Shown: positions 56,615-60,049, counted from the first letter of the stretch. The stretch is DNA of 64,000 nucleotides from Halobellus rarus (GCF_024494595.1 NZ_JANHDI010000002.1:186001-250000), one strand, 5' to 3'. The notes: generated from the letters alone by a model not told the origin. Made by a program: numbers and translations.

Positions 56615-56621
56615 AAAATGT

Positions 56622-56661
56622 CAGCAGCGGTCAGCCGAGATGGCAGCAGCGGTCAGCCGAG
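56622..56661. repeat. 22-bp tandem duplication of the displaced doxX end
   Basis: CAGCAGCGGTCAGCCGAG occurs at 56622-56639 and 56644-56661. Both copies contain TCA, the plus-strand form of the TGA stop that once ended doxX, next to the left attachment core. Confidence 0.85.
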
Positions 56662-56671
56662 GATGTAGCGC
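56661..56671. other. Left attachment core (att)
   Basis: GGATGTAGCGC, the doxX-end copy left behind by integration; the matching right copy is at 59503-59513. Confidence 0.85.
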
Positions 56672-56693
56672 TTACACATCCTGATTACATAAG

Positions 56694-56701
56694 ATTTATT
56701 C
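56694..56701 (+). promoter_or_regulatory. TATA box of the element's regulator-integrase operon
   Basis: ATTTATTC ends 23 nt before the GTG at 56725, consistent with a leaderless operon start inside the element. Confidence 0.6.
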
Positions 56702-56724
56702 AACCACACTGTTTCTGTTGATCC

Positions 56725-57222
56725 GTGGCAGAAAGAAAGCGCGTCAATCTCACAGTCTCGCCGGCACAGAAAGAGAAATGGGACGCTGCTGTATCTGATT
56801 CCCCGGAGTATTCCAGTCTCTCCGATCTAATCCGTACCTCCGTCGCACACGAACTTTCAGACAGCAACGGGGGAAGTCCCAAAGAGGTTGGCTCAAGCAA
56901 CGCAGGGGCCAACACAGAGGCATTGGAAGCAATTACAGAAACACTCACCCGTATGGAATCAACCCTCAACAGTTTAGATGCACGTGTGAACTCCCTGGAA
57001 CAGGAGGTAAATGCGTCTGAGAAGACCAACCTCAAAAACGAGATATTCAAAGTACTGCCTCCCTCGGGAGATATCGCTGATACTGAGGTAGCCGAACGGA
57101 TCAACCGAGACGAAAAGGAGGTGAGAAACGCTCTCTCTCGATTAGCTGAACAGACGAGTATGGTCGAGCGGGTTGGGAAGCCGGACGTGGATGGCCCGAC
57201 GTACTACAAGAGGATTGACTGA
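56725..57222 (+). CDS. Element-encoded DNA-binding protein (RHH-like plus winged helix)
   Basis: The 165-aa protein has an N-terminal AERKRVNLTVSPAQKEKW segment with a ribbon-helix-helix-like pattern and SLSDLIRTSVAHEL helix, a central coiled-coil (ITETLTRMESTLNSLDARV, about 70-100) and a C-terminal winged-helix-like region (about 105-165, IADTEVAERINRDEKEVRNA). It probably regulates the element or assists its integrase. GTG at 56725 follows a TATA box. Its stop overlaps the integrase start by one base. Confidence 0.65.
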   Translation: MAERKRVNLTVSPAQKEKWDAAVSDSPEYSSLSDLIRTSVAHELSDSNGGSPKEVGSSNAGANTEALEAITETLTRMESTLNSLDARVNSLEQEVNASEKTNLKNEIFKVLPPSGDIADTEVAERINRDEKEVRNALSRLAEQTSMVERVGKPDVDGPTYYKRID

Positions 57223-58211
57223 TGGATTTCGATACGGTCCTCTCGAAGTTCCGACGACGACGTGGCAGAAACTCCGCTGAATCTACGGTTGATCGGTATG
57301 TCAATCACGTCCGTAATTGGCGTGAGTGGCTTACAGACGCCCGGGGTAAGCAGATTTGGGATGCGGATTCTGTGGATTTACTCGTGTTCATAGAGGAACT
57401 TACAGACGAGGGGATGGCTCCGTCAACTATCAGTCAACGTGTCTCAGCGATCTCGAAGTTCTACCAGGATCTGGCGAAACTGACGGAACGGTACGATATG
57501 CCCGACGTACCAGAGAATCCGTATGATGGTCTTGACGGTGAGGATAAACGGTTGCTCCGAGGTGATACCAAAAAGAAGGCTGGTCTTGAGGATATTACAC
57601 AGGATGAATATCCGTACCTCAACTCCGACGAAGTGTCTGACCTGATCGATAGTGTTCCTTCCCCACGAATCCGGAACGAATTGATTATAAGATTATTATT
57701 TAATTGCGGGTTCAGACGCGGAGAATTGGCTGCTTGTAAGCTGAAACACGTAGATAGAGAGGATAAGTCTATATTTATTCCACCACGAAAATCCGACAAT
57801 AGCCGTATAGTTTCTTATAATGAAGAATATCTTGGATTTCAACTATCACAATGGTTGGATTATGGTGGTCGGGAGAGTATGACCTATGCGGAGGACTCTG
57901 AATACTTGTTTCCCACTAATTACAATCTCCATATTTCTGGCAATTCAATCAATGGAATGATAAAGAAAGCTGCTAAATCTGCAGGACTTCAGGAAACAAT
58001 CAGCGAATATTCGGATGGACGTGAAATTCATAAAGTAACTGCGCACACATTGCGACATTCGTTTGCGATGCAGGCAATTCGATCCGATATTGACGTTCGT
58101 ACGCTCCAATCGCTCTTGGGTCACGACGATCTGGATACAACCCTAATCTACCTTCAACAGTCGAAAGACGAAGCGAAAGAGGAATCACGCCTGTTCAACC
58201 CCGAAGCGTAG
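57222..58211 (+). CDS. Tyrosine integrase (phage/XerC-like)
   Basis: The 329-aa protein has an N-terminal SAM-like core-binding domain (about 1-105) and a C-terminal catalytic domain with Arg in GFRRGEL (165/166), HTLRH (His 275, Arg 278), GH (His 301) and the nucleophile Tyr in LIYLQQ (310). All catalytic positions are intact, so it is likely active. It is translated from the preceding gene's mRNA (TGATG overlap) and is the enzyme expected to use the att cores in doxX. Confidence 0.93.
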   Translation: MDFDTVLSKFRRRRGRNSAESTVDRYVNHVRNWREWLTDARGKQIWDADSVDLLVFIEELTDEGMAPSTISQRVSAISKFYQDLAKLTERYDMPDVPENPYDGLDGEDKRLLRGDTKKKAGLEDITQDEYPYLNSDEVSDLIDSVPSPRIRNELIIRLLFNCGFRRGELAACKLKHVDREDKSIFIPPRKSDNSRIVSYNEEYLGFQLSQWLDYGGRESMTYAEDSEYLFPTNYNLHISGNSINGMIKKAAKSAGLQETISEYSDGREIHKVTAHTLRHSFAMQAIRSDIDVRTLQSLLGHDDLDTTLIYLQQSKDEAKEESRLFNPEA

Positions 58212-58654
58212 GGCCAACCACACTTTGCGTATCGAGATACCACTTTCACGCACTTCCCGTGTGGGCGACATTACGCACCGCAGAGTGTCGCCAATAATCT
58301 ATCCAGTGTCTCAGACTCCACCCATAGTAGCTGACAGACTCTGATTTCGGGACGGAAATCTGGGAAAGAAGGCAAAGGATCGTTATGAATGTGCCAGAAC
58401 CGCTTTCAGAATCCCCCCTTTATGCAAGATTCTGAACGTGTCATAGCAATCCCAAAAACTCGCCGTTTCAGACACTGACATTTTACTTTTCGAGTATGAC
58501 AAGCAGTGGAAATAACGGCTCTCGTTTTTAAATGGGATCTTGCAAAATGGTTTTTCAGAAAATGGCTCAACAAACCATTACAATCCAGATTTCGAGCGAA
58601 TTGCCCTCATTCAGACCTCCCTAAGATTTATATTCTAATGCGCCGACATAGTAG
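58212..58654. other. AT-rich non-coding stretch with hairpins in the element
   Basis: No gene is supported. Two clear hairpins are present: GGCGACA (58264-58270) with TGTCGCC (58286-58292), and TTCAGAATC (58405-58413) with GATTCTGAA (58428-58436). They could be terminators of the integrase operon, operators or a structured RNA. Confidence 0.6.
58626..58633 (+). promoter_or_regulatory. TATA box of the 83-aa membrane protein gene
   Basis: ATTTATAT-type box about 22-29 nt before ATG 58655, giving the small gene its own promoter. Confidence 0.7.
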
Positions 58655-58906
58655 ATGATGGCATCCAGAAATCAAGCCGCCATCAGTTCAGACGAAAAGT
58701 TACTGCTCCTTGTCGTGGGCCTCATCATCGGTTCACTACTGGTCCTCGGCCTCGTGTTCCAAGTCGCCAATGGCGTTGCATCCGGGATCGCCGGGTTCCT
58801 TTACGATATTGGAATACCAAGGGAGATAGCAATGAATACGTACAAGACAGTGAAGTGGGGACTGGTCGGTTTACTACTGATCGCACTTGTCAAAGTGATG
58901 TCTTGA
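58655..58906 (+). CDS. Element-encoded two-helix membrane protein
   Basis: The 83-aa protein has a polar N-terminus and two transmembrane helices (about 15-38 and 65-82) flanking a Gly-rich loop with GIAGFLYDIGIPRE. It has its own TATA box and starts at one of two adjacent ATGs (58655, 58658). Small membrane proteins are common in archaeal viruses and plasmids, but nothing here proves a viral role. No family is recognised. Confidence 0.65.
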   Translation: MMASRNQAAISSDEKLLLLVVGLIIGSLLVLGLVFQVANGVASGIAGFLYDIGIPREIAMNTYKTVKWGLVGLLLIALVKVMS

Positions 58907-59494
58907 TTGAACTGTACTATCACTCCCTATCCTATCCCCTATAGTCCCCTTTCCTTTCCCTCTTGAAGTGTTATCATTACCCGAGGATAACATAGTAGTG
59001 TAACTCGAAGGGTTATCTACAGCACCGAAGGATAACACCGAGTTAAACTTACATCCGGGTTCGGAGAGTTTCGGTGCATCGAGTGGAAGATATTCCTCTC
59101 TCGCTCTATGAGTTTAAACCGCCTTAGAAGAAATTAAAAAGTTTCTAAGGCATTTACATCTATTCATCCACTTCGACTATTCCCCAAACGTCTGAAAACC
59201 GCCGGATTAAGTGACATTTCGGTATGCTCTTAGAACGCCGTGAGTAGGGTTAGAATCGTTTTGAATTTAAAACGTCCCAGGACACATACAAGCCCAAAAA
59301 GACCACCAGGAGGTTTGTGAGATACCTTAAATCACTCAGATTTTAAAGACCAGTGATGTGAGTGAACATTTGGTGAAAACCTGACTCTATTTCACCAATC
59401 TGTGAGAGAAAGCCACCTACTATTTGCGTATGGGAAAAATGTAAAAGTTCCAACCGGCTGCCCGCTTCTACTTTTTACTCAATTCTTACTCAAT
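58907..59494. other. AT-rich non-coding right arm of the element
   Basis: No gene is supported. Besides the iteron cluster it contains GCCTTAGAA (59121-59129) paired with TTCTAAGGC (59143-59151) and a smaller palindrome CGTTTT/AAAACG (59257-59274). Confidence 0.6.
58969..59048. repeat. Iteron-like inverted repeats (GGATAACA/TGTTATC cluster)
   Basis: Four half-sites of one motif lie within 70 bp: TGTTATC (58969), GATAACA (58986), GGTTATC (59011) and GATAACA (59031). The second pair is part of a longer imperfect inverted repeat, arms 58998-59017 and 59031-59048 with AACTCG/CGAGTT. It looks like a binding array for a DNA-binding protein, an origin or an operator. Confidence 0.7.
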
Positions 59495-60049
59495 CTAACC
59501 AAGGATGTAGCGCATCCACGGATACCGCTCGATGAGCGGTTGGCCGCCGACCTCGTACTGCTCGATGTAGGCGTCGAGACCGAGGATCCGTCCGGCCCCG
59601 AACGCGGCGACCGAGAGGAACACGAGCATGTACGCGAAGTCGCCGTTGATGTACCCGTGTGAGATCTCCCAGTTCCCGAGGTAGAACATCAACATCATAA
59701 ACGCCCCCCAGAACGCCGCGAGGCGGGAGAACGCGCCGAACAGGAGACCGAGGCCGATGAGGACCTCTCCCCACGGGACGGCGATGTTGACGAAGTCCAC
59801 GAACCACGGCGTCTCGCCCATCGCGACGAACAGCCCCGCGACGGGACTGCCGTTGGACGGCGGTGCGTTCTGGAGGTAGCCCGCCGCGCTGAAGCTCCCG
59901 GAGAGCACCTTGTCGATGCCGCTCTGGAAGAACGCGATACCCATCATCAGCCTGAGCGCGAGGATGAACCAGACGCTCAGGGTGTGCAATCGTCCGTCTG
60001 CGGTGAATCCGGCGACCGTGCTCCGGAGTCTGACTTCTTGAGAGGACAT
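59495..60049 (-). CDS. DoxX-family membrane protein (integration target)
   Basis: The 184-aa protein has four transmembrane helices with ALRLMMGIAFFQSGIDKVLSG and PWGEVLIGLGLLFGAFSRLAA, as in DoxX/quinol-oxidase-associated proteins. DoxX was first described as part of thiosulfate:quinone oxidoreductase, but most family members have no known role. Its last codons RYILG and stop form the right att copy and are supplied by the integrated element; the original end is 2.8 kb away at 56653-56671. A TTTTAA box lies about 31 nt before the ATG. Confidence 0.85.
   Translation of the reverse strand: MSSQEVRLRSTVAGFTADGRLHTLSVWFILALRLMMGIAFFQSGIDKVLSGSFSAAGYLQNAPPSNGSPVAGLFVAMGETPWFVDFVNIAVPWGEVLIGLGLLFGAFSRLAAFWGAFMMLMFYLGNWEISHGYINGDFAYMLVFLSVAAFGAGRILGLDAYIEQYEVGGQPLIERYPWMRYILG
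59503..59513. other. Right attachment core (att)
   Basis: GGATGTAGCGC inside the last codons of the intact doxX, identical to the left core at 56661. Confidence 0.85.

What the first reader, a model, noticed from the sequence alone, without database searches (positions are those of the whole stretch)
56657..59513. Minimal 2.84-kb integrative element that targets the last codons of a doxX gene
Seen directly: matching 11-bp (15 bp with one mismatch) cores flank an AT-rich block with a complete tyrosine integrase, a DNA-binding protein and a small membrane protein. Both cores encode the RYILG end of doxX and each is followed by a stop (TGA, TAG), so integration rebuilt the target gene. Haloarchaeal integrases usually target tRNA genes, so a protein-coding target and this tiny cargo are unusual. 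No replication or packaging gene is recognised, which suggests a satellite or a self-limited element.
Basis: partly seen in the sequence, partly recalled or inferred. Interest (0 to 1): 0.78.

Follow-up and report, generated by a model that had tools for sequence, protein, structure and literature searches.

The report
Mini-element inserting into protein-coding genes
A 2.84-kb mobile DNA element in a salt-loving archaeon has inserted at the last codons of a doxX gene and carries a substitute gene ending, and its relatives insert into several other protein-coding genes, never a tRNA gene in the cases seen, and carry an unexplained repeated hairpin.

Summary
Two copies of AGGATGTAGCGC (CCRAGGATGTAGCGC, 15 bp with one mismatch), 2842 bp apart, bound an AT-rich block with an intact tyrosine integrase, an overlapping upstream RHH/coiled-coil/winged-helix protein and a small membrane ORF. 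Same-genus genomes show the empty site, doxX running straight into the window's left flank. The element replaced CTC GGC TGA with its own CTT GGT TAG, so DoxX still ends RYILG.
It is not a doxX-specific element. Relatives of the RHH+int pair (integrase 35-81% identical) sit in other protein-coding genes: the EF-2 3' end (stop TAA replaced by TGA), one spot inside an ABC-2 permease (three hosts; in one the element carries a full-length substitute permease), a GAF/histidine-kinase gene, a redoxin gene and, in this same genome, an alkA-like gene. No tRNA gene lies at any of them. In close relatives the cores fit GGAT-7 bp-ATCC, typical of a tyrosine recombinase, with relaxed choice of site.
An additional feature: 15 same-strand hairpins with variable stems and a conserved loop, nearly confined to these elements. 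The window element has no rep, capsid or transfer gene. Integration is well supported; current mobility, replication and hairpin function are not shown.

The parts
56657..56671 (.). attL core CCGAGGATGTAGCGC (arm GGAT + 7-bp overlap GTAGCGC); outside it lies the ancestral doxX end (..CTC GGC TGA)
56685..56703 (+). conserved left-end motif TTACATAAGATTTATTCAA (TTACACAAGTTTTATTCAA in relatives); likely accessory/arm-type site
   Evidence: aligned left ends of relatives; function inferred
56725..57222 (+). 165-aa RHH / coiled-coil / winged-helix DNA-binding protein, 1-bp overlap with int; likely regulator or recombination helper
   Evidence: ORF; family of 8; AF2 model (pLDDT 73, RHH-like helices, helix 59-110, wHTH 119-163); weak wHTH matches
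56887..56913 (+). hairpin copy 1 (inside the RHH gene): GTTGGC[TCAAGCAACGCAGGG]GCCAAC
57222..58211 (+). 329-aa tyrosine integrase, catalytic residues R165, K190, H275-x-x-R278, H301, Y310 all conserved
58264..58292 (+). hairpin copy 2 just after int: GGCGACA[TTACGCACCGCAGAG]TGTCGCC
58655..58906 (+). 83-aa small membrane protein, no family; not shared by relatives
58907..59498 (.). AT-rich right-hand part without convincing ORF; holds hairpin copy 3 at 59012-59036 (GTTATC[TACAGCACCGAAG]GATAAC) and two other 9-bp-arm inverted repeats (59121-59151, 59370-59398)
59472..59493 (+). right-end tandem TTTTTACTCAA / TTCTTACTCAA; a similar TTTTACTCAATTCTTATTCA is at the same place in FL176; likely arm-type sites
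   Evidence: function inferred
59499..59513 (.). attR core CCAAGGATGTAGCGC; the element supplies CTT GGT TAG as the new doxX end
59495..60049 (-). doxX (target gene), reading frame preserved to ..RYILG*

Best explanation
A minimal integrative element (2.84 kb) of a haloarchaeal family defined by a two-gene left-end module: an RHH/coiled-coil/winged-helix DNA-binding protein overlapping a tyrosine integrase. Shown: the block is an insertion flanked by a short core duplication at the 3' end of doxX, with the last codons and stop of doxX now supplied by the element; relatives sit in other protein-coding genes with different but similar cores. Inferred: the integrase cuts either side of a 7-bp overlap (GTAGCGC here) between inverted GGAT/ATCC arms of a circular form and a chromosomal site, with relaxed choice of site and homology needed mainly in the overlap; the RHH protein and the TTACTCAA-like end repeats set efficiency or direction; excision would restore the old TGA end. 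In the integrated state it is copied passively with the chromosome; transfer would depend on other agents. Insertions at gene ends are neutral because the att site carries a substitute end; internal insertions cost a gene unless, as in G096, the element carries a substitute gene.
For: Repeats and spacing. Empty doxX site in same-genus genomes, 86% identity across the left flank and 87% in doxX in G004, with the old TGA end. Cores at 561-564 bp before int in four independent elements. Different targets with core repeats: ABC-2 permease, GAF kinase, EF-2, redoxin, alkA. Split permease in FL176 but intact in all five congeners, halves 100% and 98% identical to an intact relative. EF-2 empty sites in congeners with the flank contiguous, and EF-2 stop TAA in attL against TGA in attR. 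Substitute permease in G096, 82% and 54% identical to the host halves. Intact catalytic residues. No tRNA gene at any of the insertion sites checked with ARAGORN; the nearest is about 3 kb from the second element in the same genome.
Against: No circular form, excision or transfer was seen; all is from sequence. Empty sites are from other species, not from the same strain without the element. The 7-bp overlap model fits the ABC-2, kinase and doxX sites well and the EF-2 and redoxin sites less well. The right end of G114 is missing (contig end).
Confidence: 0.88

Rival explanations
1. A decayed remnant of a larger provirus or integrated plasmid (SNJ2- or DUF1424-Rep-type) that lost replication and structural genes and is now stuck.
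For: The more distant relatives G182 and G459 are 5.1-5.2 kb and carry a DUF1424 Rep; the second element in the same genome is about 8.6 kb and carries a large 525-aa putative replication protein.
Against: Integrase and RHH genes are intact, and three independent members in different genera are equally small (2.84, 3.03, 3.31 kb) with complete ends and different targets, which points to a mobile small form rather than one decay event.
Confidence: 0.2
2. A satellite mobilised and replicated in trans by a helper plasmid or virus, with the repeated hairpins as helper recognition, packaging or replication signals. This is compatible with the best explanation and adds a life cycle to it.
For: No own rep, capsid or transfer gene; 15 same-strand hairpins with conserved loop and compensating stems; Rep-bearing relatives exist.
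Against: No helper identified; the hairpins were not seen in the Rep-bearing relatives G182 and G459, nor as clusters in the viral contigs held.
Confidence: 0.25
3. Chance repeat next to a horizontally acquired AT-rich island; the doxX coincidence is accidental.
For: Cores are short (12 bp).
Against: Empty sites, exact core position in independent elements and separate target genes.
Confidence: 0.02

Closest known systems
Thaumarchaeal integrated elements in 3' ends of protein-coding genes (e.g. NitEve-E2; PMC6563490)
   Same: Integration with a 13-bp att in the 3' end of a protein gene; the element brings a new stop codon; elongation factor 2 is also a target there, of casposons.
   Different: Other phylum; the passages read do not describe one integrase family with many protein-gene targets, a substitute full-length gene or the hairpins.
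SNJ2-type integrases of haloarchaeal betapleolipoviruses (Wang et al. 2018, as described in PMC8371274; PMC13107129)
   Same: SAM-like + Phage_integrase architecture; [quoted passage not shown]
   Different: Described as part of a virus with structural and Rep genes; here one RHH/coiled-coil/wHTH helper, no virus genes, protein-gene targets. That SNJ2 itself uses a tRNA gene is from my own knowledge.
Archaeal XerA / XerC-D recombinases
   Same: Best NCBIfam match (XerA_Arch, 147 bits) and closest solved structures (5hxy, 4a8e).
   Different: Below the XerA cut-off of 220 bits; encoded on an element with att sites.
DUF1424-Rep (PF07232) integrated elements of haloarchaea
   Same: G182 and G459 pair the same RHH+int module with such a Rep.
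   Different: The window element and its close relatives have no Rep.

Membership tests
Tyrosine recombinase integrative element | Complete integrase with R-K-H/R-H-Y residues | tested here: met
   PF00589 E 1.6e-29; invariant residues
Tyrosine recombinase integrative element | Direct core repeats at both ends and an empty site elsewhere | tested here: met
Tyrosine recombinase integrative element | Excised circular form | not testable with these tools
   needs PCR or reads
SNJ2-type integrase family | Sequence identity of at least 30% over 60% to the SNJ2-family integrases | not tested
   SNJ2 sequence not at hand; HRPV-10/-12 records show no annotated integrase
SNJ2-type integrase family | Helper genes upstream of int, one with a MarR-like domain | tested here: inconclusive
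   a single RHH/coiled-coil/wHTH protein
Pleolipovirus or other provirus | Structural or Rep genes in the element | tested here: not met
   no close relatives in viral contigs or phage records
SSV-type suicidal integrase | att site inside int, int split on integration | tested here: not met
   int intact, core 562 bp before its start
XerA chromosome dimer resolvase | NCBIfam equivalog cut-off 220 bits | tested here: not met
   147 bits
Casposon | Cas1, PolB, terminal inverted repeats | tested here: not met
   gene content; no inverted repeat pairing the two ends

The most novel reading that the evidence does not exclude
A distinct family of tiny haloarchaeal elements whose relaxed integrase specialises in protein-coding genes, sometimes bringing substitute gene ends or whole substitute genes, and whose dispersed same-strand hairpins (conserved loop, compensating stems) are recognised as single-stranded DNA or RNA, for example as replication, packaging or transfer signals that let a Rep-less element ride on a helper.
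Probability: 0.3. Interest if true: 0.78.

Novelty: new variant of a known kind. Interest (0 to 1): 0.58.

Why it matters
It gives a natural series in which one integrase lineage has moved between similar but distinct sites in protein genes, which makes the question of how tyrosine integrases change target testable with sequence pairs. The G096 case, an element that splits a permease and brings a full-length one in the same operon position, shows how gene-disrupting insertion can be made harmless. The hairpins are a concrete, unexplained signal in Rep-less elements that can be tested in culturable haloarchaea.

Tried and rejected
tRNA or tmRNA target: rejected, none at the sites. Rfam hit in the element: none. 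Relatives in viral contigs, phages and plasmids: none close. Hairpin pattern scans of viral contigs: matches are chance hits, nearly all without a stem; those loci are not relatives. ACGCACCGCA in the own genome: one site in the element, one elsewhere without a stem, so it is not a host repeat. HRPV-10/-12 as integrase references: no annotated integrase. One search failed (wrong frame), repeated. PMC5861418 (SNJ2 integrase paper) is not held. Homologues of the 83-aa membrane protein: only one weak match, E 1e-4.

Full report
Observation. The window holds two copies of CCRAGGATGTAGCGC at 56657-56671 and 59499-59513 (12 bp identical), 2842 bp apart. Allowing two mismatches, the pattern is expected 0.37 times in shuffled windows; the two exact sites are these. 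Between them GC drops to 0.42-0.52. The block encodes a 165-aa protein (56725-57222), a 329-aa integrase (57222-58211) and an 83-aa membrane protein (58655-58906). The integrase matches Phage_integrase (1.6e-29) and the SAM-like N domain and has all catalytic residues.

Empty site. In same-genus genome G004 (L031) doxX ends ..CGCTACTTCCTCGGCTGA and continues directly into sequence 86% identical to the window's left flank; G008 (L030) is similar. So the ancestral doxX ended in CTC GGC TGA, now at the outer side of the left core, and the element supplied CTT GGT TAG. The DoxX protein is unchanged at its end. The genus search with the integrase found no close copy in the other 16 genomes.

Family. 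Searches of 170 family genomes and 392 order genomes (overlapping sets) plus the GTDB contig collection gave few relatives: G096 81%, FL176 (Haloarchaeobius) 77%, Halopenitus persicus 71%, G154 68%, G114 58%, G182 45%, G459 45%. Searching the family of FL176 gave no more. All have the RHH-like gene directly before int. AlphaFold of that protein (pLDDT 73, pTM 0.42) shows two short helices, a long helix 59-110 and a winged-helix end; fold matches are weak winged-helix proteins. The RHH reading of the N-terminus rests on sequence pattern and the two helices, not on a significant family match.

Targets. The left core lies 561-564 bp before int in four independent elements. FL176: core ATGTACTCGTTCC in an ABC-2 permease, split in FL176 and intact in its five congeners. 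G096: the same spot, with a 255-aa intact permease just inside the right end, 82% (N part) and 54% (C part) identical to the host halves, following the N-terminal host fragment in the same direction. G182: the same gene, core GATGTACTCG. H. persicus: GGATCGTCTCGATCCG in a GAF/histidine-kinase gene. G154: AGAAGTAGTCGATC, the end of EF-2; the protein end SIDYF is kept while stop TAA becomes TGA, and congeners have the empty site. G459: AACCAGAGGT inside a redoxin-like gene. G114: left core GGATTGTACGGGTTCC in a multicopper-oxidase-like gene, right end missing. Names of the kinase, redoxin, permease, EF-2, glycosylase and oxidase genes are my reading of the translations. The same genome as the window has a second, about 8.6-kb element with a 35% integrase and its own RHH gene, core ATGAGGTACATC, splitting an alkA-like glycosylase gene. 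No tRNA is at any of these sites.

Core model. Reconstructed attB sites align as GGAT-7 bp-ATCC, with overlaps GTAGCGC, GTACTCG (three times), CGTCTCG, GTAGTCG; the G182 attP is a perfect palindrome GATTGAT-GTACTCG-ATCAATC. This is inference from alignment, consistent with the general mechanism of tyrosine recombinases. The ABC-2 site is the most symmetrical and most often used, so it may be the primary site and the others secondary sites later adopted.

Hairpins. The elements carry hairpins with variable 6-7 bp stems and a conserved loop (ACGCAMCGCA-like). With the loop motif GCA[AC]CG and perfect arms of 6 or more, six elements have 15 on the integrase strand and none on the other; shuffles give 0.08 on average, at most 2 in 300. 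Of 26 motif sites on that strand 15 have a stem, against 6 of 247 in flanks and haloarchaeal background (p about 2e-13) and 25 of 3292 in viral contigs. The motif was chosen after seeing the first hairpins, and some copies are homologous between elements, so the p-value is only indicative. At matching positions the stems change in a compensating way: GGCGACA/TGTCGCC, GGCGGCA/TGCCGCC and GTCGGCA/TGCCGAC after int; GTTGGC/GCCAAC and GTTAGC/GCTAAC inside the RHH gene. Strand bias suggests a single-stranded form, RNA or DNA. They were not seen in the Rep-bearing relatives G182 and G459. My favoured guess for their role is a signal for replication or transfer with help from another element; this is speculation.

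Literature. Archaeal elements in 3' ends of protein genes with stop replacement are described for Thaumarchaeota (PMC6563490); low-specificity recombination and target switching among related archaeal integrases are reviewed in PMC8371274. No paper found in the held library describes this haloarchaeal family, which is not proof of absence.

Verdict. Ordinary in kind (a tyrosine-integrase element), unusual in size, in its consistent protein-gene targets, in the substitute-gene variant and in the hairpins.

Noticed in passing
G000:C2:143671-152293 (L027 from 5672, L251): Second, about 8.6-kb element in the same genome with its own RHH+int module (35% identity), core ATGAGGTACATC, splitting an alkA-like DNA glycosylase gene and carrying a 525-aa putative replication/primase-like protein.
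   Followed up: partly
window 56618-56661: A 22-bp tandem duplication (ATGKCAGCAGCGGTCAGCCGAG twice) directly outside the left core; the empty site in L031 seems to have one copy. Possibly an integration footprint.
   Followed up: partly
L021:3821-4901: Element in G096 carries a full-length ABC-2 permease placed right after the N-terminal fragment of the host permease that it split.
   Followed up: yes
window 58405-58436, 59121-59151, 59370-59398: Three further inverted repeats with 9-bp arms and 11-14 nt loops; not found in the same form in relatives.
   Followed up: no
window 58924-58963; L004 8085-8120 and 8158-8196: Pyrimidine-rich TATCCTATCCCCTRTAGTCCCCTTTCCTTTCCCTCTC shared by the window element and FL176, with a second variant copy in FL176.
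   Followed up: no
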